64,000 bases of DNA from a virus: positions 62,001-126,000 of IMG/VR virus record IMGVR_UViG_3300037042_004723. One strand, 5' to 3'. How positions within the stretch are numbered: the stretch's first letter is position 1; every line of letters starts with the position of its first letter. A program made the translations under genes and the position numbers. Positions 31,449 through 51,772 of the stretch are shown piece after piece. Below the pieces are notes generated by a model. The model did not search any database, had not been told where the DNA came from, and worked only from the letters and a program-made list of their open reading frames with translations.

Positions 31449-31536
31449 TGGTGGAAGACAGAGGACTCGAACCTCAAGCCCGTCAGGGCTCCAACCGCCT
31501 TCCGGGCAGGTCAGGACCATGGCCTGTTTATCTTCC
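31449..31536 (-). tRNA. tRNA-Ser (anticodon GGA)
   Basis: Long-variable-arm tRNA: acceptor GGAAGAT/GTCTTCC (one G-T pair), variable stem AGCCC/GGGCT, T arm GAGG-TTCGAGT-CCTC, CCA encoded. The anticodon loop CCGGAAG has C instead of the near-universal T33. Its 5' end overlaps the 3' end of the gene at 31528 by 9 nt. Confidence 0.85.
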
Positions 31537-31752
31537 ATGACGACGTTTTTTATCTGGGAGCGGGATGAGCTTGGCGATGGCTCCGCCTTTGATCGGCTTG
31601 CCGGCGGGGGGGTGGCGGATATGCGCCCATCTCTCTCTGGGCGGATCTCTTTTCACTTCCGTCGTGTGACCACATTGCTGGCAGTAGGTGATCATCGCTT
31701 CACCGGTCCGGTGAACATCGACGTGTTCGTATCCGCATTTGTCGCAAATCAA
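31528..31752 (-). CDS. zinc-ribbon protein ending inside tRNA-Ser
   Basis: 74 residues: MICDKCGYEHVDV...YCQQCGHTTEVK is a classical two-knuckle zinc ribbon, with a basic tail KKRRHGR. The TAA stop is formed by tRNA-Ser bases. It overlaps the GGQ gene upstream by 4 nt. Confidence 0.8.
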   Translation of the reverse strand: MICDKCGYEHVDVHRTGEAMITYCQQCGHTTEVKRDPPRERWAHIRHPPAGKPIKGGAIAKLIPLPDKKRRHGR

Positions 31753-32381
31753 TCCCAGTCACCCCGCAGGTACTTTTTTAGCTGCCACTGTTTCCCGAGG
31801 ACGTGATCTGTCACGACTCCATCCTGGGATCTGATGGTCCGGCGCTTGTCTGCCCGCATTCCCGACCCCACTTGCTCTCTGCGTGACGACGACAGGGCTG
31901 ACGACCTTTGCTCGTTTGCAGCATCCCATATTCTTGCTCGCAATATCTCCAGGGCGGTTTCTTTGTTGCTGTGCTGAGAGCGCTCAGATTCACAGCGTAC
32001 AGAGATTCCGGTGGGGACATGAGTCAGTTGCACGGCACTGTTGGTGACGTTGCGGTGCTGCCCTCCGGCGCCAGATCCACGGCAGAAGTTCCACTCCAGA
32101 TCGTCGTCTCGAACGACTACTTGGGTAGCAGTTGGCTCAGGAAGAACGGCCACCGTAATCGTGGAAGTTTGCATTCTTCCACCGGATTTCTCCTGCCAGC
32201 GGTGTCCACCCGATTCGTTGGCAAACGCTACATTAGCGCCCTTGCCAGATACCCTGAAGACGATGAGTCCAGGGCGCTCGGTCAGAAGTTCGACGCTAAA
32301 GACACCTCCGGCTCCCCATCTTTGCGTAAATGGAGAACTGGTCTTGAACGAGGCGCTTCGAGTGATCTCCGCCCTCACCAC
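31749..32381 (-). CDS. release-factor-like peptidyl-tRNA hydrolase (GGQ protein)
   Basis: 210 residues from GTG 32381. ESGGHRWQ...GRMQTSTITVAVLPEP and CRGSGAGGQHRNVTNSAVQLTH are class-I release factor core segments; GGQ is the catalytic loop that hydrolyses peptidyl-tRNA on the ribosome. The usual N-terminal domain and the stop-codon recognition motif (PxT or SPF) are absent, so it resembles codon-independent factors such as PrfH/ArfB rather than RF1/RF2. The basic C-terminal tail resembles rRNA-binding ends. It sits in the tRNA cluster, so ribosome rescue or translational takeover is a reasonable inference. Confidence 0.85.
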   Translation of the reverse strand: MVRAEITRSASFKTSSPFTQRWGAGGVFSVELLTERPGLIVFRVSGKGANVAFANESGGHRWQEKSGGRMQTSTITVAVLPEPTATQVVVRDDDLEWNFCRGSGAGGQHRNVTNSAVQLTHVPTGISVRCESERSQHSNKETALEILRARIWDAANEQRSSALSSSRREQVGSGMRADKRRTIRSQDGVVTDHVLGKQWQLKKYLRGDWD

Positions 32382-32598: not shown

Positions 32599-32671
32599 GC
32601 CTCAAGTATACCCCTGGCTAACTTGGCGTGCCTCAGTAAGCTAGTGCGTCTACCAACTCCGCCACGATGGC
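32599..32671 (-). ncRNA. tRNA-Leu-like 5' fragment
   Basis: The 5' part (GCCATCG-TG-GCGGAGTTGGTAGACGC) is a textbook tRNA-Leu acceptor and D arm, but no 3' CGATGGC strand, normal anticodon arm or TTCRA T loop follows. It begins directly after the TAA stop of the gene at 32672. Either a decayed tRNA or a tRNA-like processing signal. Confidence 0.5.
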
Positions 32672-32913: not shown

Positions 32914-32920
32914 ACACGGT

Positions 32921-32991
32921 GCGTGGGAAGGGATTCGAACCCTCAAACATCTGACCCTAAATCAGACCGCTCACCAGCTGGCGTACCCACG
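32921..32991 (-). tRNA. tRNA with Leu anticodon TAG, short variable loop
   Basis: Acceptor CGTGGG/CCCACG, anticodon stem TCTGA/TCAGA with loop TTTAGGG, T arm GAGGG-TTCGAAT-CCCTT. The variable loop is only 5 nt (TGTTT), unlike bacterial tRNA-Leu, which is class II. The base after the acceptor is C and no CCA is encoded. Its 5' acceptor strand overlaps the tRNA at 32984-33058. Confidence 0.85.
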
Positions 32992-33058
32992 ACCGGATTC
33001 GAACCGGCACTTTACCCGTCTTAAGCGGGTTGCTTCTACCAAATTGAGCTACGCGGGC
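32984..33058 (-). tRNA. tRNA with Leu anticodon TAA, short variable loop
   Basis: Acceptor GCCCGCG/CGTGGGT (two wobble pairs), anticodon stem ACCCG/CGGGT with loop CTTAAGA, T arm GCCGG-TTCGAAT-CCGGT, A73. The variable loop is 5 nt. The last 8 nt (acceptor 3' strand plus A73) are the same bases that begin the next tRNA. Confidence 0.85.
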
Positions 33059-34602: not shown

Positions 34603-35106
34603 ATGTTTAAGTCTCTCATCTCCGAGTGCCTCGCCTACCTCTCCGAAGCAGGCGAGGAGAACCAGCCCGTCAAGGCGCCCAGGAAGCACAAGCATGATCG
34701 AGCCGCCGAGCGGACTGGTCACCTCTTGAACACACCACTTTCGAGCATGTCTCGCAGGAAGATGCTCAAGACGATCCCCCACCTGCACCACCACTTCGAG
34801 AAGGGGCACGGCAAGGGCGAGGGAGACTACCGAACGGTAGACCTGGATGACCTGAATACCCTTAGCAAGCATGCTGAGCAGATCTCCAACGACGCGAATG
34901 CAATCATGCGGATGCCTGGACCGGCGCACCACCTGGCTGGTCACCTCTGCAAGCATGTTGCGAGCGCTCACGAGCGGATGAGCAAGTACTGGACTGACAA
35001 CAGTGACAACGAGTCCGCCGAGCTTCACGGAAGCGAGAGCGCCAAGTATGGCGACATGGCCAAGCACCATCACAAGGTTTCCAAGCGCCACGGGTACGGT
35101 TACTAG
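34603..35106 (+). CDS. His-rich protein sharing the MF-LISEC leader
   Basis: 167 residues. MFKSLISECLAYLSEA matches the start of the upstream product; the rest is a His/Lys-rich helical protein (HLHHHFEKGHGKG, HHLAGHLCKHVASAHERM). The shared leader could be a packaging or processing signal. Function unknown. Confidence 0.75.
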   Translation: MFKSLISECLAYLSEAGEENQPVKAPRKHKHDRAAERTGHLLNTPLSSMSRRKMLKTIPHLHHHFEKGHGKGEGDYRTVDLDDLNTLSKHAEQISNDANAIMRMPGPAHHLAGHLCKHVASAHERMSKYWTDNSDNESAELHGSESAKYGDMAKHHHKVSKRHGYGY

Positions 35107-35179
35107 TCCGCCGAGATGGACTTGAACCAGCAACCTATCGCTTATAGGGCAGCCGCTATATCCATTGAGCTATGGGATC
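35107..35179 (-). ncRNA. tRNA-Ile-like element with mismatched acceptor
   Basis: The D arm and an anticodon region compatible with TAT are present, as is the T loop TTCAAGT. But the 5' strand GATCCCA and 3' strand TCGGCGG cannot pair, and the T stem and anticodon stem are imperfect. It begins right after the stop of the plus-strand gene. Confidence 0.5.
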
Positions 35180-35300
35180 AGAAAGGTGACTCTCCACGTC
35201 CGAAGTGTTTATCGGCCGCTGGCTTGCGCCAACCATGCCCGGTCGACCAAGCCTTGCGGCTCACCGACTCCGGGATCTACCCTCGCCTGGTAAAGAGTCT

Positions 35301-35321
35301 AAAAAGAGGGGCCGCCGCCCC
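35301..35321 (-). terminator. intrinsic terminator after gene 35443-35715
   Basis: Minus strand GGGGC-GGCG-GCCCC followed by TCTTTTT. Confidence 0.85.
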
Positions 35322-35358
35322 GGATGTTTAATGTGCGCGGGACCCTAGGTTCGACCGA

Positions 35359-35372
35359 CGCAAGCGCTTGCG
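35359..35372. promoter_or_regulatory. dispersed palindrome site 6 (perfect)
   Basis: CGCAAGCGCTTGCG between the terminator at 35301-35321 and the gene ending at 35443. No promoter is evident next to it. Confidence 0.7.
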
Positions 35373-35442
35373 CTGCTATTGCGTGAGAAGTGCTCGATGC
35401 TGTTTTGGATGATAACCATCGGACTCCGGCTCACCTAAAATG

Positions 35443-35715
35443 TCAGGCCTCTGCGGTTCCGATCGGAATCTGGAAGGAGAGTCCCTCCCCTTCCAGGAAT
35501 CTCGCGTGGAGGCGGTTGATCAGCTGGTCGAAGGTGAAGCTGTCATCTGACGAGCCAACGTGCGTGTGGTCCTCGCCGATGTAGAGGGTGATGGCATTCC
35601 CTCCCCAGTCTGGCCCGAACGAGACAACTGGAGCCGTTGGATCTTTGCCGGCTGCGGCATCGCAGAGCCGGACAATCTCTTTCAGTATCTCTTCGCATTT
35701 CTCAGCTGTCGTCAT
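35443..35715 (-). CDS. small protein starting 2 nt after tRNA-Glu
   Basis: 90 residues (AEKCEEILKEIVRLCDAAAG..., then GGNAITLYIGEDHTHVG). Two bases separate A73 of tRNA-Glu from the ATG, the tightest such junction here. Translation must use the processed end, read through the tRNA, or start on an internal transcript. Function unknown. Confidence 0.75.
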   Translation of the reverse strand: MTTAEKCEEILKEIVRLCDAAAGKDPTAPVVSFGPDWGGNAITLYIGEDHTHVGSSDDSFTFDQLINRLHARFLEGEGLSFQIPIGTAEA

Positions 35716-35717
35716 CG

Positions 35718-35790
35718 TGACCCCGGTGAGAATTGAACTCAACGTCTTCGCTGTGAAAGAGCGACGTACTAACCATTATACGACGGGGCC
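35718..35790 (-). tRNA. tRNA-Glu (anticodon TTC)
   Basis: Acceptor GGCCCCG/CGGGGTC with one wobble, anticodon stem TCGCT/AGCGA with loop CTTTCAC, T loop TTCAATT. Confidence 0.92.
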
Positions 35791-35802
35791 GTGATTGTCA
35801 CG

Positions 35803-35873
35803 AGCGTACCGAGGGAGTTCAACCGAGGTCGATCGCTTACAAGGCGATCATTCCGCCACCGAACTACTCCACA
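35803..35873 (-). ncRNA. tRNA-Thr-like element (anticodon TGT) with unpaired 3' half
   Basis: Perfect anticodon stem ATCGC/GCGAT with loop CTTGTAA and a plausible D arm. The T stem (CTCGG versus CCCTC) and acceptor strands do not pair. It ends 12 nt before tRNA-Glu. Confidence 0.55.
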
Positions 35874-35897
35874 GTAAGATCGTGTATATTCAAGTCT

Positions 35898-36074
35898 ATG
35901 AACGACAAGCGAAAGCAAAGCCTCTACTTCCCAGAAGACATGCTGGCGGAGGTCCAGGCCGAAGCCACTCGCCTGGACCGCTCGCTCTCTTGGGTGGTCC
36001 AGCGCGCCTGGACCCTCTCAAGGGAGAAGCTGAAGGAGATCCCTTCAATCAACCAGCCAACAGAGACAGACTAG
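35898..36074 (+). CDS. ribbon-helix-helix protein (CopG/TIGR04563-like)
   Basis: 58 residues. KQSLYFPEDMLAEVQAEA forms the beta strand plus first helix of an RHH domain and TRLDRSLSWVVQRAW the second helix. The pattern is close to a small RHH type I associate with myxobacteria, which gives a host hint. RHH dimers bind operator DNA. TATATT lies 7 nt before the ATG, so leaderless. Its stop touches the next tRNA-like element. Confidence 0.8.
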   Translation: MNDKRKQSLYFPEDMLAEVQAEATRLDRSLSWVVQRAWTLSREKLKEIPSINQPTETD

Positions 36075-36148
<74 letters not shown>

Positions 36149-36305
36149 GGTCAGACTCTGCGCAAAAATCTGCGAATAGTCAAGGCCGAGGTGATGTCCA
36201 GCTGTAAGTATATGAATTCATAATATACACCGTAGCGTAGGGCGCGGTGTCTTACACGTGGTTGATAGGTGAACGGACCGTTACATTACTGACAACACTT
36301 GCTTT

Positions 36306-36333
36306 ACCCTGCATTGTTGGCATAATCAAGGTC
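36306..36333 (+). promoter_or_regulatory. promoter of gene 36354
   Basis: TTGCTT-like -35, 16-bp spacer and CATAAT -10, followed by a leader with AGGGAGG before the ATG. Positions approximate. Confidence 0.5.
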
Positions 36334-36353
36334 ATCCCAACAGGGAGGCCCCT

Positions 36354-36680
36354 ATGAAGTACACACGAGTTCTCATCGCGAAGGTTGCCCTTCGAGTCGC
36401 TTCGGAAGACGAGGTCTTCTGGGTGGAGAAGTGCATCAAGGAAGGCTGCGGCTGTGCGGAGGAGATCAAGAACATCCGTGCGCTCTCCAGCCTGCCCAGG
36501 ACGCACTCCTGCGTCGAGGATGCGGCCCTGATCGTTATCGCTGACAAGAACAAGATGTCCATGTCCGACGAGGACCACATCTTGTCCTGTGGGCGCTGCG
36601 CAAGGATTGGTCAGTACATCGCCAGCATGCCGTTCCCGGCCACCCCCGCCCAGACGAGGTCGCTAGCCCTGGCCGGGTAA
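36354..36680 (+). CDS. Cys-containing protein, unknown
   Basis: 108 residues. CIKEGCGCAEEIKN and HILSCGRCARIGQ supply several Cys for a metal site. A strong ribosome site (GGGAGG) and a following hairpin terminator make it a self-contained, probably well-expressed unit. Confidence 0.75.
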   Translation: MKYTRVLIAKVALRVASEDEVFWVEKCIKEGCGCAEEIKNIRALSSLPRTHSCVEDAALIVIADKNKMSMSDEDHILSCGRCARIGQYIASMPFPATPAQTRSLALAG

Positions 36681-36703
36681 CGCTTCCACGACCAGTGGCC
36701 GAC

Positions 36704-36743
36704 GGCCAGCAAGCCTAGAGATAGTCCTGCTGGCCTTTTTTGT
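36704..36743 (+). terminator. intrinsic terminator after gene 36354
   Basis: GGCCAGCA and TGCTGGCC arms followed by TTTTTTGTTTT. Confidence 0.85.
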
Positions 36744-36758
36744 TTTCTACAATGTCTC

Positions 36759-36787
36759 TAGACAATTGGATCTGTTATCGATAGCGT
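36759..36787 (+). promoter_or_regulatory. leaderless promoter of gene 36795
   Basis: TAGACA (36759-36764) followed by AT, 17-bp spacer, TAGCGT (36782-36787), 7 nt, ATG 36795. Confidence 0.75.
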
Positions 36788-36794
36788 GGCTGCG

Positions 36795-37067
36795 ATGAAG
36801 GCTCTGCTAGCGCTAGCAATGGCTGGGTTACTAGTCGTTGCGACGATCGGGCTATCCGGCGAGGGGGCCGTCTGGACCAGATACGTTGGCGCAGGGATGG
36901 TGTTCGCTCTGCTGATGCTGATCTTGACCGGGGTATCGAACATCCCAAGCACGACAGATCTCAAGAAAATGATGATGGGCGCTGATCCTACTATGGCTCC
37001 GAAGTCCATGCCGGTCGTTCCCGACGACGATGACGAGCTTCCTAGCCGGCGCAGCGCCCGCAACTGA
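36795..37067 (+). CDS. two-helix membrane protein
   Basis: 90 residues: hydrophobic helices at LLALAMAGLLVVATIGL and VGAGMVFALLMLILTGV, acidic tail PDDDDELPSRR. The short loop suggests a hairpin in the membrane (holin-like size), but the endolysin is far away. It overlaps the next gene by 1 nt (TGATG). Confidence 0.75.
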   Translation: MKALLALAMAGLLVVATIGLSGEGAVWTRYVGAGMVFALLMLILTGVSNIPSTTDLKKMMMGADPTMAPKSMPVVPDDDDELPSRRSARN

Positions 37068-37687
37068 TGTCGAGTCGCATTCTTATACTTGACGTCGATG
37101 CTGACAAATACGACGGCATCGTAGAGGCGCTTCGCAAGAAGCCTTCGGTCCGCGTCGTGTCCATGGACCGCGAGGCCCGCAGGCACCTTCGTGAGTGCCC
37201 GGCGTGCTGTCGGAAGCTGTCCAAGGAATCGGCATTTACGATCGACGAGAAGATCATCGACGCCCTGATCAAGGTCACGCAGCGGATGCGGGTCGCCAAG
37301 ACCGTCGTCTTGGTGAACGAGGACAATCCGCAATCCGCCTTGTCATCCATGGAGCACGAGCGATGCGTCGAGGTAGACGCTGTGGTTGCTCAGCGTGCGG
37401 TAACCCTGGGCCTCCTGAAGCCGTTTATGGACGGCGCCCGGCTGACTCACTACGTCAGTGCGTCCGGGCTGGAATTCCTGTCGGGTAACAAGCCAGCCTC
37501 GCCCTGCACGATGCATGTGCTCGATGGCGAGGTCGTGGAGACCAGCGGAGAGATGATGATCGAGAACGTAAAATTCAAGGATGTCCACCGAGCGACATCC
37601 GTAGCCAGAGATGGGGCCAGGGCTGTGAAGGCCATCCCCCAGCACGTGACGAACTTCGTAATTAACGGCCAGATGAGCCTTATTTAA
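37067..37687 (+). CDS. unknown protein with CPACC motif
   Basis: 206 residues. SRILILDVDADKYDGIVEAL has a receiver- or nucleotide-fold-like beta-alpha start with two aspartates; ECPACCRK may bind metal. The rest is alpha/beta. Immediately upstream of two HU-type genes; no function assigned. Confidence 0.7.
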   Translation: MSSRILILDVDADKYDGIVEALRKKPSVRVVSMDREARRHLRECPACCRKLSKESAFTIDEKIIDALIKVTQRMRVAKTVVLVNEDNPQSALSSMEHERCVEVDAVVAQRAVTLGLLKPFMDGARLTHYVSASGLEFLSGNKPASPCTMHVLDGEVVETSGEMMIENVKFKDVHRATSVARDGARAVKAIPQHVTNFVINGQMSLI

Positions 37688-37697
37688 GAGGATGGCG

Positions 37698-37973
37698 ATG
37701 ACGAAATCAGATTTGATCCGATGGGTTTCCGTGAAGACCGAGATTTCTTACCCCGAGGCAGAGGTGGCGGTTAACGCCTTCTTTGATACAATGACAACCG
37801 CTCTTAAGGAGAACCGGCGCGTCGAGCTTCGTGGATTTGGATCGTTCTCCGTCAGGGACTACGACGGCTACATGGGCCGCAACCCACGCACCGGGGAGAC
37901 GGTCAACGTCGCCCCCAAGAAGATGCCGTTCTTCAAGGTCGGCAAGGAACTACGCGAAGCGGTCAACGGCTAA
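37698..37973 (+). CDS. HU/IHF-family DNA-bending protein 1
   Basis: 91 residues from ATG 37698 (ATG 37692 also in frame; AAGAGG lies upstream). TKSDLIRWVSVKTEISYPEAE then VELRGFGSFSVRDYDG and GRNPRTGETVNV are the canonical HU helices and beta arm with the intercalating Pro. It compacts or bends DNA. Confidence 0.93.
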   Translation: MTKSDLIRWVSVKTEISYPEAEVAVNAFFDTMTTALKENRRVELRGFGSFSVRDYDGYMGRNPRTGETVNVAPKKMPFFKVGKELREAVNG

Positions 37974-37984
37974 GGAGAATTCAG

Positions 37985-38308
37985 ATGGAAGAAGAAAAGA
38001 CTGACAGCGTTACCAAGGCCGTGCTTGCTGAGAAAATTGGCGAGGCCGTGCCATCTGCTAGCATCAAAAAAGCGAACGACATCGTCGAGAGCATCATCCT
38101 TGGCATCAAGGAGGCCCTCGTGAAGAAGGAGGGCGTCAAGATTTCCGGTTTCGGAAAGTTCTCGACCAGCGAGAAGGCCGCCCGCAAGGGCCGGAATCCT
38201 CAGACGGGCGCCGAAATTACCATCGCCGACCGATGCGTTATCAAGTTCAAGGTCAGCGACTGCCTCAAGGCTGAGCTGAACGGGAAGCCATTCTCCGGTT
38301 CGGACTGA
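37985..38308 (+). CDS. HU/IHF-family DNA-bending protein 2
   Basis: 107 residues. TKAVLAEKIGEAVPSASIKKAND, VKISGFGKFSTSEKAAR and GRNPQTGAEITI repeat the HU pattern with a longer N-terminus. It lies 11 nt after the first copy; the pair probably forms a heterodimer like IHF or HUab. Confidence 0.93.
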   Translation: MEEEKTDSVTKAVLAEKIGEAVPSASIKKANDIVESIILGIKEALVKKEGVKISGFGKFSTSEKAARKGRNPQTGAEITIADRCVIKFKVSDCLKAELNGKPFSGSD

Positions 38309-38333
38309 TATTTTTGATCAAGGAAATTATACT

Positions 38334-38362
38334 TTGACAATGCAGCCATGACCTATTAGCTT
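38334..38362 (+). promoter_or_regulatory. leaderless promoter of gene 38369
   Basis: TTGACA (38334-38339) followed by AT, 17-bp spacer, TAGCTT (38357-38362), 6 nt, ATG 38369. Confidence 0.85.
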
Positions 38363-38368
38363 TAGGTC

Positions 38369-38818
38369 ATGGCAAACGCAGTTCTCAAAATGACCGGACC
38401 CACCAAAATCATCGAGCTTGACGGAATTCCGTCCAAGAACTGGAAGTTGAACGATACCGCCGTTCATCTCTGGAAGGGCAAGCTGTGGCGCAAGGAGAAG
38501 GTTGGCTGCGTCCTTTGCGTCGATAAGGAGGGGCCCGAGCACGCGACCCTTTGTCATGCCGACGATGATGGCGTTGAGCACTTCCACTGCATGGAGCACA
38601 ACGAGCTTATCGCGGTGCCCTACTCGATGAAGAAGGTCTACACGATCACCATCGGTGACGTTCTGCGCGAGGGGCAGGAGCTTCTCGAAGACACGATGCT
38701 CTTCCCGTCGGAGATGACGCTGGCCTCGCGCAACGAGCTGATCAACCGCCTCCTCGATGACGCCGCCAACGAAGAGAAGGAGTCTGGCCCGGCTCCCACC
38801 TCGACGGATGATGAGTAG
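38369..38818 (+). CDS. unknown protein
   Basis: 149 residues. CVLCVDKEGPEHATLCHADDDGVEHFHCMEH is a Cys/His cluster (about residues 47-77) that could hold one or two zinc ions. Acidic C-terminus. Strong leaderless promoter implies high expression, but no function is recognised. Confidence 0.75.
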   Translation: MANAVLKMTGPTKIIELDGIPSKNWKLNDTAVHLWKGKLWRKEKVGCVLCVDKEGPEHATLCHADDDGVEHFHCMEHNELIAVPYSMKKVYTITIGDVLREGQELLEDTMLFPSEMTLASRNELINRLLDDAANEEKESGPAPTSTDDE

Positions 38819-38883
38819 TCCTAAAGGATTAGCTCTTTTTACGCAGTAGACAATCACGTGCAGGCCGGTGCATCTATAGCGCC

Positions 38884-39072
38884 ATGTTAGATGCACCGGT
38901 TTGCCATGAGCCGACGAGTCGACAGGTAGAGGCTGCTGCCAAAGCCTGGATGACGTGGCAGTTCCCGGGCAGATCCTGGGACGATGCAGTTCCAGAACTG
39001 CAGGACAAGTTCCGGGATGGGGCTCGCCGCGCCTTGGTCGCAGCTGCCAATGTTTCGAGCGAGTTCGATTAG
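38884..39072 (+). CDS. small protein, unknown
   Basis: 62 residues: PTSRQVEAAAKAWMTWQFPGRSWDDAVPELQDKFRDGARRAL, a helical body common in phage early proteins. A TAGACAAT box lies upstream; the -10 spacing is irregular. Confidence 0.65.
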   Translation: MLDAPVCHEPTSRQVEAAAKAWMTWQFPGRSWDDAVPELQDKFRDGARRALVAAANVSSEFD

Positions 39073-39125
39073 TCGAAAGAATCCAGATGGCGGTTCACGA
39101 ATTTAACCGAAAGGGCAAGCGATAA

Positions 39126-40466
39126 ATGGCCAAGATTGCACTAACTATCAGCGAAGATTACTGTCCGGAATGGGATCTGTTTTGCGGAATTCGCGAGTTC
39201 ATGCAGAACGCGCGTGACGCTACCAGGGTGGGCTGTACGTTCGATGCAGTCTACCTGGCCGATGCCAACGTCGTTCGAATCAAGACGACTGGCGCGGTTC
39301 TAGAGCATCGCACGCTGCTTCTGGGCGAGTCCTCGAAGCGGGGCCGCTCGGACATGCTGGGGCAGCAGGGGGAGGGCTACAAGATTGGCTCCCTGGTCCT
39401 CTGCCGGCTTGGCAAGGGCGTCAAGATTCGGACCGGTGACGAGGTCTGGATTCCGGTCATCGAGTACTCGAAGCAGTTCGGCGCCAAGGTGCTGCACTTC
39501 GATATCTCCAAGGGCCGCAAGAACGTCAACGAGGTCGTCGTCGACATCTCCGGCGTGACCGAGGAGGAGTGGCGCTCGATCAAGAACAAGTTCTTGTTCA
39601 TCGAGGACGAAGGCCAGACGGTGGTTGAGTCGCCCGCCGGCTCAGTGATCATCGATGGCGTGGGTCACATCTTTGTCGACGGCATCTGGGTGTGCCGCCT
39701 GGCGAAGCTCAAGCACGGCTATGATTTCCGTCCGGCCGATACCAAGCTGGACCGTGATCGTCGCTTGATGGAGTCGTGGGAGGCCCACACCCTTACGGCC
39801 AGGGCGTGGGAGGCGCTGTACATGCGGTCCACGCGCGAGTACTGCGAGCGGGTTGATGCCATGCTGGCTGACGCCACTCCCGATGTGGAGCACTTCCGCT
39901 ACGACTGGTGCGTGGGCATGAACACGCGCAAGCAGGTCGCCAGCCGGTTCAAGGAGAAGTTCGGCGAGAAGGCCATCCCGGTCAAGACCGAGAGCGAGGT
40001 CCGAGAGGCAGAGTTCTACGGTCGCCATGCGGCCGTTGTCGATGCGGCCCCGCTCAGAGATATCTTGGAGCGAGAAATCGGCACCATCGAGTCCGTGAAG
40101 CGAGACTTGGCCGATGAGGTTGTGGCCGAGCATACTGCCATCAGCCTGGAGCCGTTGGAGTCCAAGAATTTCATGATGGCGATGGAGTTCGTGTCCAAGG
40201 CCATCAAGAAGTCTGGGCTCACGTTGGCCAAGGACATTACGATCGTCGAGTTCCGTAGTCCTTCGGTGATGGGCATGCGGAAGGGCGACAAGATCTACCT
40301 GAGCCGCAACACGCTTGGCTCATTCGAGGAGGCCCTCAAGACTCTTGTTGAAGAGGTGGCTCACGAGTTCGGTGCAGATGGAACGCACAATCACGTCGAA
40401 AGAATGCATGAGATCTACGCCAACGGCGTGGCGATGCTTTTGACAGAAGGACCAGGTAGTGCCTAA
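39126..40466 (+). CDS. GHKL ATPase with C-terminal zincin-like motif
   Basis: 446 residues. CGIREFMQNARDATRVG is the N box (E-x-x-x-N-x-x-D-A) and LGQQGEGYKIG the G2 loop of GHKL (Hsp90/MutL/histidine-kinase) ATPases. Residues about 415-440 read TLVEEVAHEFGADGTHNH, reminiscent of a metallopeptidase HE...H site but not canonical. No MutL or kinase domains are present. The fusion is unusual; a chaperone-like or anti-defence role would be inference. Confidence 0.75.
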   Translation: MAKIALTISEDYCPEWDLFCGIREFMQNARDATRVGCTFDAVYLADANVVRIKTTGAVLEHRTLLLGESSKRGRSDMLGQQGEGYKIGSLVLCRLGKGVKIRTGDEVWIPVIEYSKQFGAKVLHFDISKGRKNVNEVVVDISGVTEEEWRSIKNKFLFIEDEGQTVVESPAGSVIIDGVGHIFVDGIWVCRLAKLKHGYDFRPADTKLDRDRRLMESWEAHTLTARAWEALYMRSTREYCERVDAMLADATPDVEHFRYDWCVGMNTRKQVASRFKEKFGEKAIPVKTESEVREAEFYGRHAAVVDAAPLRDILEREIGTIESVKRDLADEVVAEHTAISLEPLESKNFMMAMEFVSKAIKKSGLTLAKDITIVEFRSPSVMGMRKGDKIYLSRNTLGSFEEALKTLVEEVAHEFGADGTHNHVERMHEIYANGVAMLLTEGPGSA

Positions 40467-40749
40467 AGCCGCTCCCGAAGACATTGTTTGTGCTGGATGT
40501 GGACGACCGATCGATAAGTATCGGTCGTCTCGCTATCCAGGTGACCGCGCTGTCGAGGTCAGGGTTGGCAAGTTCCTGCAGAGCCAGGTTGTTGATGGCA
40601 AGCGGAAACCAGGTCGGCCACGCACCAAGAACGAAAAATTCAAGGCGGAGTCCGTCTGGGGTGTGATGCACCTTGGATGCTTTGTGCGTTCGCTCGAATC
40701 GCCGGACGACGTTTTCGCTGAATTGAGCGTGCAGCATGTCGCTCGATGA
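40459..40749 (+). CDS. zinc plus AT-hook protein
   Basis: 96 residues from GTG 40459, overlapping the ATPase gene by 8 nt. CAGCGRPI...MHLGCFVR gives a zinc site and RKPGRPRTK is an AT-hook core. Likely DNA-binding. Confidence 0.75.
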   Translation: MPKAAPEDIVCAGCGRPIDKYRSSRYPGDRAVEVRVGKFLQSQVVDGKRKPGRPRTKNEKFKAESVWGVMHLGCFVRSLESPDDVFAELSVQHVAR

Positions 40750-40963
40750 CGACGACAACTCGGTCATCGGTGGCCTCAAGAAAATGGCCGTGCTTGAGGG
40801 ATATGAGCCGGGAACCGATCGGTTTGAGATGCGAGTTCGTCAGCTCCAGGTCACCAAATGCCGAGAGATGAAGGGCGTTAACTCTTGTCATGAGTGCAAT
40901 TTTTTTGACTACTGCGACCTGGTCAAGAAAGTGATGCGAGAGCGGCGTGGCCACGACGAATAG
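40736..40963 (+). CDS. small Cys-containing protein
   Basis: 75 residues: a helical start (DDDDNSVIGGLKKMAVLEGY) then CREMKGVNSCHECNFFDYC, a four-Cys site. It overlaps the upstream gene. Confidence 0.7.
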   Translation: MSLDDDDNSVIGGLKKMAVLEGYEPGTDRFEMRVRQLQVTKCREMKGVNSCHECNFFDYCDLVKKVMRERRGHDE

Positions 40964-40979
40964 ACTTTCTGGAGAAAAT

Positions 40980-41255
40980 ATGACCGCAGAGCGCAGTAAA
41001 CCAGAAAATATCAAGGAAGTTAAGGGGTCTGCCAGCAATCCTGAACGGGATGAGGTAGAAGGGTCCTCCGAAGACACCAATACAGGGATGCGCAGCACAT
41101 CAGGCAGGATCGTTCGCCCGTCTACGGCGGAAGTCAGGCACGAGGTTATGCGGCTCTCCAAAGAAACTGGACAGTCAGAATTTGAGCGTGGCATCAAGGT
41201 CGCATTGGAATGGATCTTGGGAGACAGGAAGACGCTCAGACGTCCCGACAAATAA
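40980..41255 (+). CDS. unknown charged protein, possible RHH-type C-terminus
   Basis: 91 residues from ATG 40980 with GGAGAAAAT upstream; a GTG at 40947 is possible. Disordered acidic first half, then PSTAEVRHEVMRLSKETGQSEFERGIKVALEWIL, compatible with a short helical domain. Function unknown. Confidence 0.65.
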   Translation: MTAERSKPENIKEVKGSASNPERDEVEGSSEDTNTGMRSTSGRIVRPSTAEVRHEVMRLSKETGQSEFERGIKVALEWILGDRKTLRRPDK

Positions 41256-41267
41256 TGCGGAGGACTT

Positions 41268-41921
41268 ATGTTTGAATGGCTCTATTATCCGGTGATTGCG
41301 AAGCTGTGGTACCTGGTCGCGCTGTTCGCATGGACATCTCCTCATGCGGAGGCGGACGCAACCGCACCTATTCCTGAACTAACGGCGAGCTACGCGAGCG
41401 TCGTGGCATCAAGCTCCCATATACCGCTCCCGCCCACGCCGGACGAGCACGGGATTGCTGCTCGCTATGGGGCCCCAGGCGACAAGTTCGCTCAGCAGGG
41501 AACGGCCTGCGCGCCGCACGCCAAGATCAACGACGTTGATCATGTCTGCGCGCATCGACGGTATCCGTGTGGCACGATTCTGATCGTCGAGAACCAGAAG
41601 ACCAAGGACCGCAACTGGTGCGTGGTTCTCGATCGCGGTCCGTTCGGCGCAAGTGTTTTCGCGGCCGACGGCACCAAGGTGATGGTCAAGCCCAAGAAGG
41701 CTGCCTGGTACATTAAGATTCGTGAGGGAGACCTTCCTCCCGATAGCCTGTGTCCCGACGGTGAATGCGTTGGAAAGTGGCGTGGCGTCCTGGATGTGAG
41801 TCCAGCGGTCAGCAGGGGCATGAACCACACTGGATGGGGTAACGTTAAAGTGTGGAAGCTTAGGCGCGTCGTGGATCTCCAGAGATATCTTGCGAAGAAG
41901 GCTTCCCGTCCGGTTATCTGA
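41268..41921 (+). CDS. exported RlpA-like double-psi beta-barrel protein
   Basis: 217 residues. A hydrophobic N-terminal segment (IAKLWYLVALFAWTSPHAEA) looks like a signal peptide or anchor. The barrel shows CAHRRYPCGTILIVENQ, VLDRGPFGA and a late DVSPAVSRGM, the H-x-x-P-x-G-T and D-R-G-P-F pattern of RlpA/DPBB proteins, which act on or bind peptidoglycan. A strong GCGGAGG ribosome site precedes it. It may aid lysis or entry. Confidence 0.8.
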   Translation: MFEWLYYPVIAKLWYLVALFAWTSPHAEADATAPIPELTASYASVVASSSHIPLPPTPDEHGIAARYGAPGDKFAQQGTACAPHAKINDVDHVCAHRRYPCGTILIVENQKTKDRNWCVVLDRGPFGASVFAADGTKVMVKPKKAAWYIKIREGDLPPDSLCPDGECVGKWRGVLDVSPAVSRGMNHTGWGNVKVWKLRRVVDLQRYLAKKASRPVI

Positions 41922-41944
41922 AGCTTGAACGGTAGTCGGCTCCG

Positions 41945-42340
41945 ATGTACGTTCCGGTCCTCGTGCCGGATTCCAGTCATCGAAGCGAAAGCCTGGCTAT
42001 CATCACCGCCATGCTCAGCGAGTCCAGCGGGTTGTGGAAGATCTCCGATGCTCGCACCGGCTTGTTGCGAAAGCATATGGACGCTCTGTCGAGCAGATCT
42101 AAGTCATCGATTGGGGAGATGATTTCCATCGCCGAGAGGGGAGATCTGTTTTGGCCAACCAAGGCCGAGTACTACGCCGCTCTCCACGAGATTAAAATTG
42201 CACCGGCATCTGTAGGCCGGAAACAGGTCGACATCGTCATCTCTGACATGATCAAAGGTGCCAGGTTGGACAACGTGTCCGACAGGGCCTGGGTTAAACA
42301 GGCAATCGAAATTCTAAGAAAAATCTCCGCTGATGTTTAG
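41945..42340 (+). CDS. unknown helical protein
   Basis: 131 residues, mostly helical (ESLAIITAMLSESSGLWKISDARTG..., ending AWVKQAIEILRKISADV). No motif recognised. Confidence 0.65.
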   Translation: MYVPVLVPDSSHRSESLAIITAMLSESSGLWKISDARTGLLRKHMDALSSRSKSSIGEMISIAERGDLFWPTKAEYYAALHEIKIAPASVGRKQVDIVISDMIKGARLDNVSDRAWVKQAIEILRKISADV

Positions 42341-42381
42341 CGGCGCGGGACACGTTGACAATGCATGTGCGTGGTAGTTCG

Positions 42382-42612
42382 ATGGTATCAAGGAAGCAGA
42401 TAAAGCAGGAGCATGTACGTCATCCGTACACCAAGAAGAAGCTTCGCGTTATCGACACGTTTGAGCCGATCGACGCTCCGTTGTGTCCTGGCTGCAATGG
42501 CGGCATAATCAAGCAGATAAAGGTAGTTGAGTCTGAGTACCCGGGCGGCGTCCGGTACAATATTATTACTTGTGAAACTTGCGATCAGCCTATCTGGGTG
42601 ATCCCGAGTTAG
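42382..42612 (+). CDS. zinc-ribbon protein
   Basis: 76 residues from ATG 42382; a TTG at 42355 sits in a TTGACAAT box and is less likely. CPGCNGG...ITCETCDQPIW is a two-knuckle zinc ribbon. Basic N-terminus (KQIKQEHVRHPYTKKKLR). Confidence 0.7.
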   Translation: MVSRKQIKQEHVRHPYTKKKLRVIDTFEPIDAPLCPGCNGGIIKQIKVVESEYPGGVRYNIITCETCDQPIWVIPS

Positions 42613-42635
42613 CCGATAAGAAAGGTCAGTGATCG

Positions 42636-43238
42636 ATGGGCGCCCTCCTCTCTTTCCATTCCGTTTTCCGTGACTACACCGACAACTTCACCGAGTGGAA
42701 GCAGCAGACCTTTAAGTCGCTGTCAGCTTTGATGAAGCAGGTGATTACGGTTCACGAGAAGGCATGGACGGCCAAGTTGGAGGAGAACCTTACCCTGCCG
42801 CTCTCCATCTTTGAGAAGGCAGACGAGGTCCATCCTGGCGTCTGGATTGGGAGCTACTCGTCGGTTGTTGACGACGAGCTGAGCAAGGAGATCGACGTCG
42901 TTCTGAACATGGCCATCGAATGCGATTACACGCTGAAGGCCAAGACGCAGCTCGTCAAGATAGGCATCGAGGATGGTCGCCTCACGAACGTAGGCGTCTT
43001 CAGGAAGGCCGCAGAGGTCATTCACCATGCCAGGGAGTCTGATAAGACGGTCCTGGTGCATTGCGCGGCAGGCGTCAGCAGGAGCAGCACGGCGGTTCTG
43101 GCGTACCTGATGCTGCATGAGGGCATGGGCTGGGTGGAGGCGCTAGGGTACGTGCAGAAGAGCAGATCTTGCGTAAACCCTCATCCACTGCTCGTCAGAT
43201 CCATGATCAGAGATCTCGGCTCGGACTTCCTTCCGTAG
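42636..43238 (+). CDS. dual-specificity protein phosphatase
   Basis: 200 residues. VHCAAGVSRSSTAVLAYLM is the HC-x5-R catalytic loop (about residues 140-148) and VLNMA...VKIGIEDG contains the general-acid strand expected in VHR-like enzymes. A 60-residue helical N-terminus precedes it. Phage-encoded DSPs are uncommon; it could dephosphorylate host or phage proteins or RNA 5' ends. Confidence 0.88.
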   Translation: MGALLSFHSVFRDYTDNFTEWKQQTFKSLSALMKQVITVHEKAWTAKLEENLTLPLSIFEKADEVHPGVWIGSYSSVVDDELSKEIDVVLNMAIECDYTLKAKTQLVKIGIEDGRLTNVGVFRKAAEVIHHARESDKTVLVHCAAGVSRSSTAVLAYLMLHEGMGWVEALGYVQKSRSCVNPHPLLVRSMIRDLGSDFLP

Positions 43239-43298
43239 CGTGATCTTTTTTCGGAGGCACTAGGGCGCCGATCCACTAGATGTAGTGGTCGGCTTGGT

Positions 43299-43340
43299 GG
43301 CGAGCACTACTGGTCAAGTGCTCGCCATTCTTCGTTTTGT
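43299..43340 (+). terminator. intrinsic terminator after the phosphatase gene
   Basis: GGCGAGCACT and AGTGCTCGCC arms followed by ATTCTTCGTTTTGTT. A smaller hairpin (CCACTA/TAGTGG) lies just upstream. Confidence 0.8.
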
Positions 43341-43368
43341 TGACATTGAAAGATCTGGCCGATAGCTT
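43340..43368 (+). promoter_or_regulatory. promoter of the replication operon
   Basis: TTGACA (43340-43345), 17-bp spacer, TAGCTT (43363-43368), directly after the terminator. The first gene has a ribosome site about 35 nt downstream. Confidence 0.7.
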
Positions 43369-43405
43369 GCGCGACCTACTGCGACACCAGGACGAGGAGC
43401 GCGCG

Positions 43406-43822
43406 ATGACGATGATGGTTGCTGGGAACTCTTACTATTCGGTTCCTGATCTTCGCAAGCGCAGGTGGTCTTCTGCTGCGATTAGGAAATTTCTTCCTGA
43501 AATCCCGGACCATGTTCAGAAGAAGCCGCCCTGGTTTCCGCAGTCCCAGAAGTCATCCAACGAAATGAAGTTCTGGCGCACGGACAGGGTACACAACGCT
43601 GAGAAGTCCAGCGAGTTCATCGAGTGGATGTCCGGCGAGGCTATTCGTGCCGAAGCGTATCAGCGCACCAACGAAGCACGGCTAAGGAATATTGCCCAAC
43701 GTCAAATCCCTGACCCTCCGCAGGGACATGTCTCGCTGGAAGATCAGTACAAAAACATTCGCGAGGAGAGATCTTCCAAGTCAGCATCGTCGGCTGCCAG
43801 AAAAAACAGGATGCGGCCATGA
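43406..43822 (+). CDS. unknown protein, first gene of replication operon
   Basis: 138 residues from ATG 43406, preceded by GAGGAG. Basic body (RKRRWSSAAIRKFLPEIPDHV) and a charged C-terminal helix. It overlaps the next gene by ATGA. Possibly a replication accessory protein by position only. Confidence 0.7.
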   Translation: MTMMVAGNSYYSVPDLRKRRWSSAAIRKFLPEIPDHVQKKPPWFPQSQKSSNEMKFWRTDRVHNAEKSSEFIEWMSGEAIRAEAYQRTNEARLRNIAQRQIPDPPQGHVSLEDQYKNIREERSSKSASSAARKNRMRP

Positions 43823-45090
43823 CTGATCCTCGAAGTGAATTATCTGAGGTCGTCAACGAGGATTGGACCTTTGACGTTGTTCGCACATACGTGCTGGGCG
43901 TTGAGGCCTTTGATCTGAACATCTCCGCGATGGAATTGCGGCTCCTGATTATGCTGAGAATCCGCGCTTCCGGCGGGCGGAATAATCACGTTTCAAACGA
44001 GACCTTAGCCAAAGACCTTGGCGTGCAGAAGAACGCCATCGCTGGCTACATGACGAACCTGGTCAAGCAGGGATACGTCGTGTGCAAGTCGCGAGGATAT
44101 GGGTCTCCGACGCTCAAGACCATCAAGTCTATGGTCACGAGATACGATGACGACATTCTGAAGATGACCAGGAGGGACCTGTTCGGGGCAGGTCGTTCTG
44201 ATGAACTTCTCGAACGCCTTCATCACCCAACGGCTGGCCGGAAACCGGTTGACAGTGCCTCCAAGTCCAGTAACACCCGAACGGGTGCTACTGGTGGAGG
44301 GGCGTCCAGTAGCACGCGATCGGATACCATGGAGGCACGCGATCGGGTGACTCTAGAAGCACGCGATCGAGTGACTGAAGTAGATAAAGAGATAAATCAA
44401 AATGAATTAGATTCCGCGACCTGTGGTCGCGACGCGACTGAAAATTCCGGAAGAAGATTCCGGAAGATTGGTCATACCAGATCAGGAGAGTCCTATGACA
44501 AAGACACTGGTGAGGTATTAGATTCTGTCGTTCTTCCTACTCAAGATCCGGAGAAACTTCGCGCCATGGGGTTGGACGAAGGCGACGTCCGGCAGGCGAG
44601 GGCCATGGCGGCTGCGGTCCAGGCTGTCACCAGGAACGCCAAGGTGGCCCATGAGCGCGATGAGATGCTCCTAGCGAGAAAGGCCCAGGACGAGCGTTCC
44701 GGGCTCGCCAAGACGCGCAGGCTGGCTCGTGAGGAGGAGCGCCTGGCCAACAAGACGGCCGGCGGCAGGTTCTACGAATGGGCACAGGTCGAGTACGACC
44801 GCTTCTTCCCGACGATTAGGATGACCAAGTGGATGAAGACCGAGTTCTCGCAGCTTAAGACGTTGCGCGAGGCTTGCCATAACGACGACGTGCTTGTTCG
44901 GAAGTCCTGGTCGTATCTGTGCGAGCACTGGGACGAACTGACAAAAAAGTTGAAATTAGCCGACTCTGCCCCGACTATCGGCCTGCTCCTGGCGATACGG
45001 GCTCGGATCGTTCCGCTCGTGCAGGAGAGGCAGACCGATCGGCAGTACGCCGAACGCTCTGCGACACCTGGGAAGCTTGGAGAATGGTGA
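43819..45090 (+). CDS. replication initiator-like winged-helix protein
   Basis: 423 residues. The N-terminal 120 residues form a winged-helix segment (SAMELRLLIMLRIRASGGRNNHVSNETLAKDLGV...NLVKQGYV) as in phage replication initiators. A long charged linker with repeated ARDRVT follows, then a helical C-terminal domain. Directly upstream of a DnaC-like loader, consistent with an origin-binding initiator that recruits helicase. Confidence 0.7.
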   Translation: MTDPRSELSEVVNEDWTFDVVRTYVLGVEAFDLNISAMELRLLIMLRIRASGGRNNHVSNETLAKDLGVQKNAIAGYMTNLVKQGYVVCKSRGYGSPTLKTIKSMVTRYDDDILKMTRRDLFGAGRSDELLERLHHPTAGRKPVDSASKSSNTRTGATGGGASSSTRSDTMEARDRVTLEARDRVTEVDKEINQNELDSATCGRDATENSGRRFRKIGHTRSGESYDKDTGEVLDSVVLPTQDPEKLRAMGLDEGDVRQARAMAAAVQAVTRNAKVAHERDEMLLARKAQDERSGLAKTRRLAREEERLANKTAGGRFYEWAQVEYDRFFPTIRMTKWMKTEFSQLKTLREACHNDDVLVRKSWSYLCEHWDELTKKLKLADSAPTIGLLLAIRARIVPLVQERQTDRQYAERSATPGKLGEW

Positions 45091-45782
45091 GCGGCGCAAG
45101 TGCTTGCGCGGCAGAGATGGCCAAGATGACAGACGACAGCCCAGCGTCCAGCGATAACCGACGGAAGGTTACCCATGCCGATCTGTCCAGGGTGAACCTG
45201 GGCAAGGAGTTCTGGGGGGTCCGCACCGATCGGATCCAGATGTCACAGGTCCGCGAACTGGTGCTTCGGTTTAGGAAGAACATCAGGGAGATGATCTCTA
45301 CGGGTAGTGGTTTGGTATTCAGCGGTCCACCAGGGGTGGGCAAGACGGCTGCTGCGGCTTGCATCCTGAAGGAGACCATCAGCGCGGGGTACGGGGCTTA
45401 CTTCGTGACTCACAGTGAGCTTAAGGACCTCAGGTTCGAGAAACATCCGTCACTGTTCGGCAGCGGGGCGGACGGCGTTACGGTTCGTCGGAAGATAGAC
45501 ATCGTTTCGCTTCTGGTTCTCGATGGGTTCAATGATCCGTTCTTCACGGACAATGTGTTTGGACCCCTTCAGCTCGAAGAGCTTCTGGTTCGCAGAAACT
45601 CCCAGAAGCTATCTACGATCATGACGGTCAGATCGCGCCTGACTCTGAAGCAGGAGAAGTTCTCTGATCTGCTCGATGTCATCAGTCAGGTCATGTTCTC
45701 TGTTCCCATGTCTGGGAAGAACATGAGGGACGCTGACCGAGAGAAACTGGGCAAGCGCATGCTTGGGGGCGGTGATTCTTGA
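45084..45782 (+). CDS. DnaC-like helicase loader (AAA+ ATPase)
   Basis: 232 residues. GLVFSGPPGVGKTAAAACIL is Walker A (about residue 75) and IVSLLVLDGF the Walker B strand; arginine-finger region follows in TIMTVRSRL. The set and size fit DnaC/DnaI loaders. Start ATG 45084 overlaps the previous stop; ATG 45117 or 45126 would also work. Palindrome site 7 lies in the first codons. Confidence 0.8.
   Translation: MVSGASACAAEMAKMTDDSPASSDNRRKVTHADLSRVNLGKEFWGVRTDRIQMSQVRELVLRFRKNIREMISTGSGLVFSGPPGVGKTAAAACILKETISAGYGAYFVTHSELKDLRFEKHPSLFGSGADGVTVRRKIDIVSLLVLDGFNDPFFTDNVFGPLQLEELLVRRNSQKLSTIMTVRSRLTLKQEKFSDLLDVISQVMFSVPMSGKNMRDADREKLGKRMLGGGDS
45095..45108. promoter_or_regulatory. dispersed palindrome site 7 (one mismatch)
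   Basis: CGCAAGTGCTTGCG at the junction of the initiator-like and loader genes. Confidence 0.6.
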
Positions 45783-46039
45783 TCAACTCGGATCTTGGCT
45801 TCACCTGCGAGGTCTGCGGCCAGGCTGTTTCTGCTGGTGATCGTGCCACTCGCGTCCTAGCGGAAACCTGCGTGATTGATCATGGCGGCGGTGCAATCAG
45901 GTCGAGAGGGGATCAGGAAGTGGTTTTTGCGGTGTTCCACGAGGAGTGCGTCTCCGGCACGTATGCCGCCCGCGAGTGCGACGTCGTTGCCTATATTTCC
46001 GAGGCCCGTGAAGTGGTCGAAACAAGTGGGGCCATGTAA
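45779..46039 (+). CDS. small Cys-containing protein
   Basis: 86 residues from TTG 45779 overlapping the loader stop (TTGA). CEVCGQAVSAGDRATR plus a later HEEC give a possible LIM-like zinc site. It also overlaps the helicase gene by one base. Confidence 0.65.
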   Translation: MINSDLGFTCEVCGQAVSAGDRATRVLAETCVIDHGGGAIRSRGDQEVVFAVFHEECVSGTYAARECDVVAYISEAREVVETSGAM

Positions 46040-48645: not shown

Positions 48646-48901
48646 GCACGCCCAGCGCATGTGCCCTCGTTGCGATGGCGTGGTAACGGCCAAGTCCGCA
48701 TTTGCCGTCCACATATGGGCAGATGGTGGGCGACTTATTTACGATGTAGTTTCGACGAAAAACAACCACCATGGCGGGGTGCTGATGCATATGTCAGCGG
48801 ACCGAGAGTGCAAGGTCGTGGTTTCCGGTTATCTTAGCAAAATGCTTAGAAAGCTAGAGCTTACGATTGATTGCGATACCTCCGCCCTGGACGCCTTCTA
48901 G
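48632..48901 (+). CDS. zinc-ribbon protein
   Basis: 89 residues: MCPRCDGVV near the start and a possible further ligand set (HMSADRECKVV). It overlaps the helicase stop by 14 nt. Function unknown. Confidence 0.65.
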   Translation: MFHSEHAQRMCPRCDGVVTAKSAFAVHIWADGGRLIYDVVSTKNNHHGGVLMHMSADRECKVVVSGYLSKMLRKLELTIDCDTSALDAF

Positions 48902-48905
48902 TTCC

Positions 48906-48934
48906 TTGACAATTCCGTTGTTACCTATTAGATT
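48906..48934 (+). promoter_or_regulatory. promoter of gene 48988
   Basis: TTGACA (48906-48911) followed by AT, 17-bp spacer, TAGATT (48929-48934); then about 53 nt to the ATG with AAGAGG. This is a leadered use of the same promoter type. Confidence 0.65.
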
Positions 48935-48987
48935 TGATTTGTAAATGGCGCTATACTTGGCGCTGGTTCAAGGCGAAGAGGTACAAC

Positions 48988-49542
48988 ATGGTGTCCAAGC
49001 GAGTTCAGGAAGTGGTTGATCGGTTTGTTGTGGAGTTGATTGCCGTTGCCAAGGTGGACGCGGCTGAGGAGATCAGCAATCGGCTGCGCGGTGTCTTCGG
49101 TGGTGAGGCTCCGGCGCGCGAGGTGTCTCCGGCCAAGGACAGGAAGACGACGAAGGGCTATAAGGTTACCAGGCCGTGTCCGATCGAGGGGTGCGGCGAG
49201 ATTGCGGTGTCCCGTTTCGGGATGGTCTGCAAGGGGCATAGCGAGACGCTGTCCCGTGAGGAAGTCTTGGTTGCGCGTGACAACGCCAAGAAGCCTGGCG
49301 GTGTTTGGGCTGCGGCGGATGATCCTGTCCCGGTCAAGACCCGAAGGACCACGAAGGGTTACACAGTGCTCAGGCCATGCCCGATTGCTGGATGCCAGGA
49401 GAATGCGGCACCCCGCTTCGGAATGGTCTGCAAGGCGCATGGCGCTGCGCTCTCCAGGGAGGAGATCTTGGTCGCCAGGGACAATGCTGTGAAGCCTGGC
49501 GGCATCTGGTTCGGCCTGAAGGCAAGCAAGAAGGTCGCGTAG
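48988..49542 (+). CDS. protein with two tandem zinc repeats
   Basis: 184 residues from ATG 48988. An N-terminal helix domain is followed by two near-identical units of about 55 residues (TTKGY-x-V...RPCPI-x-GC...RFGMVCK-x-H...LSREE-x-LVARDNA-x-KPGG-x-W). Each unit has C-x4-C...C-x2-H. The duplication suggests recognition of a repeated DNA or RNA target. Confidence 0.8.
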   Translation: MVSKRVQEVVDRFVVELIAVAKVDAAEEISNRLRGVFGGEAPAREVSPAKDRKTTKGYKVTRPCPIEGCGEIAVSRFGMVCKGHSETLSREEVLVARDNAKKPGGVWAAADDPVPVKTRRTTKGYTVLRPCPIAGCQENAAPRFGMVCKAHGAALSREEILVARDNAVKPGGIWFGLKASKKVA

Positions 49543-49576
49543 GAAGCTTCAGTGGTGGCTGTGCTATTCTGCCTGC

Positions 49577-50017: not shown

Positions 50018-50033
50018 CTTCCGCTACTGAGCG

Positions 50034-51110: not shown

Positions 51111-51217
51111 TGGACGCTGCCGGGATCTTGGACGACATCCGTTGACTATGTCAGACCCCCCTGGTAGTGCTGACGGGTCGCCGAGAATGGCGTCGCAAGG
51201 TACCGACAAGGTCCAAC

Positions 51218-51770: not shown

Positions 51771-51772
51771 TC

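What the first reader, a model, noticed from the sequence alone, without database searches (positions are those of the whole stretch)
32921..33058. Two tRNA genes share the same acceptor bases
The 3' acceptor strand plus A73 of the tRNA with anticodon TAA (32984-32991) is also the 5' acceptor strand of the tRNA with anticodon TAG. Both cloverleaves fold well by eye. A single transcript cannot give both mature tRNAs unless one is repaired. Overlapping tRNAs are known from mitochondria, where the missing bases are edited back.
Basis: seen in the sequence. Interest (0 to 1): 0.7.

Follow-up and report, generated by a model that had tools for sequence, protein, structure and literature searches.

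The report
Phage tRNA genes fused at acceptor strands
In a bacterial virus two neighbouring tRNA genes really do share nine bases, most likely because a small recombination event joined them where their ends happened to match, so one RNA copy can yield only one of the two tRNAs; four more such pairs turned up in other viral sequences, although a review says such overlaps are not found in bacteria.

Summary
On the minus strand a tRNA with anticodon UAA (33058-32984, 57.6 bits) and one with anticodon UAG (32992-32920, 44.6 bits) share 9 nt, 32984-32992 (one more than reported). Both pass Rfam's tRNA cut-off. The UAG tRNA has one acceptor mismatch, U1.C72. A close relative (L014) has the same UAA tRNA with the same 3' end, TCGTGGGTACG, not overlapped: it is followed by a different, long-armed UAG tRNA between the same flanks. 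The intact 3' strand of the window's UAG tRNA predicts a lost 5' end GCGTGGG. The simplest history is recombination at a ~10-nt match (CGTGGGTACG), which cost the UAG tRNA its G1. This happened in a shrinking array: two relatives carry 37 and 47 tRNAs, this record 8. Pattern scans of 2.9 million viral contigs found four more overlapping pairs (5-7 nt); one has unfused syntenic relatives consistent with a 7-nt slip between GGGAG repeats. I found no sign of tRNA repair genes. By a published E. coli experiment the upstream tRNA should mature and the downstream one be lost. Overlapping tRNAs are known from mitochondria; I found no report from phages. RNA data are lacking.

The parts
32984..33058 (-). 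tRNA with anticodon UAA (reads UUA, Leu), type I, 75 nt, upstream in transcription; no encoded CCA
   Evidence: RF00005 57.6 bits; ARAGORN; homologue with the same 3' end in L014
32920..32992 (-). tRNA with anticodon UAG (reads CUA, Leu), type I, 73 nt, downstream; U1.C72 mismatch; followed by CCG, no full CCA
   Evidence: RF00005 44.6 bits; ARAGORN; nearest annotated match is Bixzunavirus tRNA-Leu(caa), about 75% identity
32984..32992 (-). 9 nt shared by both tRNAs (UCGUGGGUA): positions 65-73 of the UAA tRNA = positions 1-9 of the UAG tRNA
32982..32991 (-). CGTGGGTACG, the inferred recombination junction: present after the T stem of the unfused UAA tRNA in L014 and predicted for positions 2-11 of the unfused UAG tRNA
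   Evidence: L014 sequence and alignment; 5' strand deduced from the intact 3' strand CCCACGC
32635..32671 (-). 5' half of a type II tRNA-Leu (GAG in L014), truncated by a separate deletion; a sign of tRNA-array shrinkage
   Evidence: similarity to L014 2440-2480, then joined to sequence matching L014 from about 5757

Best explanation
The overlap is a recombination scar. In an ancestor like L014 the UAA tRNA ended in CGTGGGTA followed by CG and was not overlapped. A type I UAG tRNA whose 5' end read GCGTGGGTACG was joined to it by recombination through the 10-nt match CGTGGGTACG, replacing the long-armed UAG tRNA that L014 and L015 have at this place (shown by comparison for the UAA side and both flanks; inferred for the UAG side from its own 3' strand). 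The incoming tRNA lost its G1, giving U1.C72. Both genes keep pairable acceptor stems because the junction lies inside the matching bases, so good stems are no proof that both work. In one transcript the shared strand pairs with either partner; processing must choose. Inferred from E. coli work: the host's 3' trimming releases the upstream UAA tRNA and destroys the UAG tRNA, which is therefore poorly made or dead. The change may be tolerated because CUA is rare in this phage and other tRNAs have also been lost.
For: L014: same UAA tRNA and same TCGTGGGTACG end, then ATTTTT and a type II UAG tRNA; similarity resumes right after the window's UAG tRNA. L015 also has unfused UAA plus type II UAG. 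Predicted GCGTGGG from the intact CCCACGC. Array shrinkage: 37 and 47 tRNAs in the two relatives' records versus 8 here, plus the tRNA-Leu(GAG) half. Second case: in L087, Asn and Val tRNAs share GGGAG, while syntenic cyanophages S-8S56, Bellamy and S-SM2 have them 2-4 nt apart; the L087 layout equals loss of 7 nt between two GGGAG repeats. Repeats of 5 nt or more exist in about 2.4% of random tRNA pairs. Processing: PMC4284800 on E. coli. CUA is 5.4% and UUA 2.8% of Leu codons in 21 window ORFs.
Against: No unfused copy of the UAG tRNA was found in viral or genome collections or in the relatives' arrays, so its original 5' end is inferred. The UAG tRNA shows no decay apart from U1.C72 and a weak D stem, as expected if it still works or if the event is young. 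The E. coli experiment used a 1-nt overlap and another pair; the host here is unknown. Folding of the joint RNA is ambiguous: the UAA stem is favoured (0.71 versus 0.22) for the pair alone but the UAG stem (0.90) in a flanked model that misfolds the UAA tRNA. In L087 the mismatch lies in the upstream tRNA, not the downstream one.
Confidence: 0.62

Rival explanations
1. Both tRNAs are used: the shared strand is a switch, and separate transcripts are matured to either the UAA or the UAG tRNA, depending on whether 3' trimming or RNase P acts first.
For: Both genes score well over the tRNA cut-off; the two acceptor stems are close in computed stability, forced difference about 1 kcal/mol; overlapping pairs recur in four other viral contigs.
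Against: No conservation of this overlap in relatives. In mitochondria separate-transcript processing was excluded, and in E. coli only the upstream tRNA survived (PMC4284800). Good stems follow from the joining event itself.
Confidence: 0.2
2. One tRNA is cut short and then rebuilt, as in mitochondrial tRNA editing (3' additions to the upstream tRNA or Thg1-like 5' repair of the downstream one).
For: Geometry like mitochondrial overlaps of 1-6 nt; a 1:72 mismatch as in 5'-edited tRNAs (PMC4284800).
Against: No Thg1, CCA-adding, RtcB or RNA_ligase match in the record; nine bases would have to be restored; the review states such editing is not known from prokaryotes. The record may be incomplete and host enzymes are unknown.
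Confidence: 0.06
3. Assembly or sequencing artefact joined two tRNA genes.
For: A single metagenomic record; the junction lies in a short repeat.
Against: Both flanks are syntenic with L014; a 10-nt match is short for an assembly join; independent overlaps occur in other records.
Confidence: 0.07
4. The UAG tRNA is an attachment site: a copy of a host tRNA used for integration, not a working gene.
For: Phage attachment sites often carry the 3' part of host tRNA genes (PMC10865867).
Against: Two tRNA-specific patterns found no match in 84,980 bacterial and archaeal genomes; Pfam scans of ten neighbouring ORFs showed no integrase. The real host may be absent from the collection.
Confidence: 0.05

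Closest known systems
Overlapping tRNA genes of animal mitochondria (for example tRNA-Tyr/tRNA-Cys) with 3' editing
   Same: Two tRNA genes on one strand share acceptor bases, so a transcript can give only one complete tRNA (PMC4284800).
   Different: Mitochondrial overlaps are 1-6 nt and the upstream tRNA is rebuilt; here 9 nt in a phage, with no repair gene found and an overlap not conserved in relatives.
Tandem phage tRNA arrays, including type I tRNA-Leu genes of Bixzunavirus (Tonenili)
   Same: Closely packed same-strand tRNAs, including a tRNA-Leu(caa) about 75% identical to the UAG tRNA.
   Different: Their genes abut within a few nt but keep separate acceptor strands.
Four further overlapping pairs found here (L076 Phe/Met, L080 Gln/Lys, L087 Asn/Val, L089 Lys/Leu)
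   Same: 3' acceptor strand of the upstream tRNA is the 5' strand of the downstream tRNA.
   Different: Overlaps of 5-7 nt, other isotypes, other viral contigs with no close relation seen to this phage.

Membership tests
tRNA genes (RF00005) | Covariance-model score over the gathering score, for each of the two | tested here: met
   57.6 and 44.6 bits against 29
Overlapping tRNA genes | Shared bases inside both mature tRNAs on one strand | tested here: met
   9 nt, 32984-32992
Mitochondrial-type overlapping tRNAs with editing | A repair activity restores the missing bases | tested here: inconclusive
   No Thg1, PolyA_pol, RtcB or RNA_ligase match in the 197-kb record; the record may be a fragment and the host is unknown
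Mitochondrial-type overlapping tRNAs with editing | Edited ends seen in mature RNA | not testable with these tools
   needs RNA from infected cells
Leucine tRNA (bacterial, type II) | Long variable arm | tested here: not met
   Both tRNAs have short variable loops; the assignment to Leu rests on the anticodon alone
tRNA pseudogene | Loss of conserved structure in one member | tested here: inconclusive
   The UAG tRNA has only U1.C72 and a short D stem; no relatives of it to measure decay

The most novel reading that the evidence does not exclude
Phages repeatedly evolve overlapping tRNA genes, and in at least some of them both tRNAs are made, by alternative processing or by end repair, in a bacterial cell where such overlaps were thought not to work.
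Probability: 0.2. Interest if true: 0.75.

Novelty: new variant of a known kind. Interest (0 to 1): 0.45.

Why it matters
[quoted passage not shown] coli cannot process such a pair (PMC4284800). The window and four other viral contigs show that such gene pairs arise naturally in phages, probably by slips between matching acceptor strands. They are natural test cases for how bacterial processing chooses between two tRNAs, and they show how crowded phage tRNA arrays shrink. They also warn that a good cloverleaf score for both members of an overlap does not mean that both tRNAs are made.

Tried and rejected
The first pattern scan used too long a D-loop spacing and could not match the window itself; it was replaced. 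One search gave 55 stretches for overlaps like the window's; split-ARAGORN checking found real shared acceptor strands only in the window's own sequence. Searches for an unfused UAG tRNA failed (in viral contigs, 42 and 53 in genomes, 78 in the relatives' arrays); a pattern for further copies of the UAA tRNA also found nothing (it demanded a base that L014 lacks or was otherwise too strict). Plasmid search gave only weak partial matches. INPHARED searches for relatives of L076, L080 and L089 found only general tRNA similarity, so persistence of those overlaps could not be tested. Relatives of a virus record are not drawn by the genome tool. Compensatory evolution in the UAA stem was considered and dropped: the two G-U pairs are already present in L014, which has no overlap. 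Flanked RNA folding misfolds the UAA tRNA and was not used as evidence for either side.

Full report
Observation. The window lies in a 197,279-base virus record (G000). ARAGORN finds two overlapping tRNA genes on the minus strand. Rfam RF00005 gives 57.6 bits to the UAA tRNA, 33058-32984, and 44.6 bits to the UAG tRNA, 32992-32920, when it is scored without its neighbour; the gathering score is 29. The shared stretch is UCGUGGGUA, 32992-32984, nine bases rather than the eight reported. It supplies U65, C66-U72 and A73 to the UAA tRNA, and U1, C2-G7, U8 and A9 to the UAG tRNA. The UAA acceptor stem is G1-U72, C-G, C-G, C-G, G-U, C-G, G-C; the UAG stem is U1.C72 (mismatch), C-G, G-C, U-A, G-C, G-C, G-C. 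Neither gene encodes a full CCA.

Relatives and origin. A protein with an RF-1 (peptide release factor) domain encoded nearby (31749-32381) was used to find relatives. In L014 (97% identity for that protein) the same UAA tRNA is present with the same 3' end TCGTGGGTACG, but it is followed by ATTTTT and a separate type II (long-armed) tRNA-Leu UAG; in L015 the UAA tRNA is likewise followed by a separate type II UAG tRNA. Aligned with L014, the window is similar up to and including CGTGGGTACG, then carries the short type I UAG tRNA, then is similar again from GTTTGACTTCG. So the strand shared in the window also exists in an unoverlapped UAA tRNA, G-U pairs included. The intact 3' strand of the window's UAG tRNA, CCCACGC, predicts an original 5' strand GCGTGGG; with U8, A9 and the D stem it would have read GCGTGGGTACG. 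The two genes thus had about ten matching bases, CGTGGGTACG, and a join inside them gives exactly the window sequence, at the cost of G1. This explains the U1.C72 mismatch. It also explains why both stems look sound without any selection for both.

Setting. Rfam counts 37 tRNAs in L014's record (55 kb) and 47 in L015's (194 kb), but 8 in this record (the records may be fragments). The window also has the 5' half of the tRNA-Leu GAG of L014, joined to sequence that lies about 3.3 kb further on in L014. The tRNA array has therefore probably been losing genes by deletions. UUA and CUA make up 2.8% and 5.4% of leucine codons in 21 window ORFs. The UAA tRNA itself is well kept: its A27-U43 pair is intact here and is U.U in L014, and it scores higher than L014's (57.6 against 49.9 bits).

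Is it unique? A pattern scan of 2.9 million viral contigs for the window's geometry gave 55 stretches. Checking each with ARAGORN on its two halves left no other case; the window's own record is not shown in such scans. A second scan for overlaps of about 5-7 nt gave 19 stretches, of which four are real overlapping pairs: L076 Phe/Met sharing GGGCCA, L080 Gln/Lys sharing GGGACTG, L087 Asn/Val sharing GGGAG, L089 Lys/Leu sharing GGGACCA. On the whole records both members of each pair score 58-75 bits. These counts are lower bounds, since the patterns demand standard T-loop sequences and short tRNAs. So the thing is rare but recurrent, with different isotypes in different contigs.

Second look at the mechanism. 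L087 is a cyanophage fragment syntenic with Synechococcus phage Bellamy and its kin. S-8S56, Bellamy and S-SM2 have the Asn and Val tRNAs 2, 3 and 4 nt apart. An Asn tRNA similar to L087's in phage Sf-FS3 ends in CTTGGGAG, and the Val tRNA begins GGGAG in S-8S56. Loss of one GGGAG repeat and a 2-nt spacer gives the L087 arrangement. Among random pairs of tRNAs from the fetched loci, a match of 5 or more nt between the 3' strand of one and the first nine bases of the other occurs in about 2.4%, so such slips have enough raw material.

How it probably works. Both tRNAs lie on one strand, presumably in one transcript (inferred). Releasing the UAA tRNA at its 3' end cuts the UAG tRNA after position 9; releasing the UAG tRNA at its 5' end cuts the UAA tRNA in its T stem. 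Folding of the joint RNA does not settle the choice: for the pair alone the UAA stem is favoured (0.71 against 0.22), with flanks the model misfolds the UAA tRNA and favours the UAG stem; forced energies differ by about 1 kcal/mol. A review reports that E. coli, given an artificial tRNA pair overlapping by one base, released the upstream tRNA complete and degraded the downstream one, and that overlap editing is not found in prokaryotic systems (PMC4284800). On that basis the UAA tRNA is the likely product and the UAG tRNA is mostly lost. I found no match to Thg1, the CCA-adding/poly(A) polymerase family, RtcB or RNA_ligase in the record; host enzymes are unknown.

Known or new. Mitochondrial overlaps of 1-6 nt with repair of the upstream tRNA are the closest known thing (PMC4284800). 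A survey of tRNA genes in virus genomes does not use the word overlap (PMC6409571), and literature searches for overlapping tRNAs in phages found none, in an open-access library only. I file it as a new variant of a known kind. The weakest points are the single record for this junction, the missing unfused UAG tRNA, and the absence of any RNA data.

Noticed in passing
L014:4426-4573 and L015:3483-3629: A tRNA-like gene with an enlarged, identical anticodon loop (GCTTAAGCAA; ARAGORN calls a four-base anticodon) abuts tRNA-Leu CAA with no spacer in both phages, so its discriminator base would be G1 of the next tRNA, although the stem sequences differ.
   Followed up: partly
window 32920-33058; L011; L020 (Tonenili): tRNAs with leucine anticodons but no long variable arm occur in several phages; how or whether they are charged with leucine is unclear.
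   Followed up: no
window 31749-32381 (-): A 210-aa protein with an RF-1 (peptide release factor) domain lies in the tRNA region and has relatives in four other viral contigs.
   Followed up: no
window about 31450-31540 (-): A type II tRNA-Ser-like sequence with anticodon GGA, not reported by ARAGORN or Rfam; L014 has a detectable tRNA-Ser GGA after the same gene.
   Followed up: no
window about 35800-35870 (-) and 35105-35180 (-): Two further tRNA-like sequences (Thr UGU-like and Ile-like by eye) that neither ARAGORN nor Rfam reports; possible decayed tRNA genes.
   Followed up: no
G005 34828-52491 and G006 33654-54981: Relatives of this phage carry 37 and 47 Rfam tRNA matches, a near-complete set of isotypes.
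   Followed up: partly
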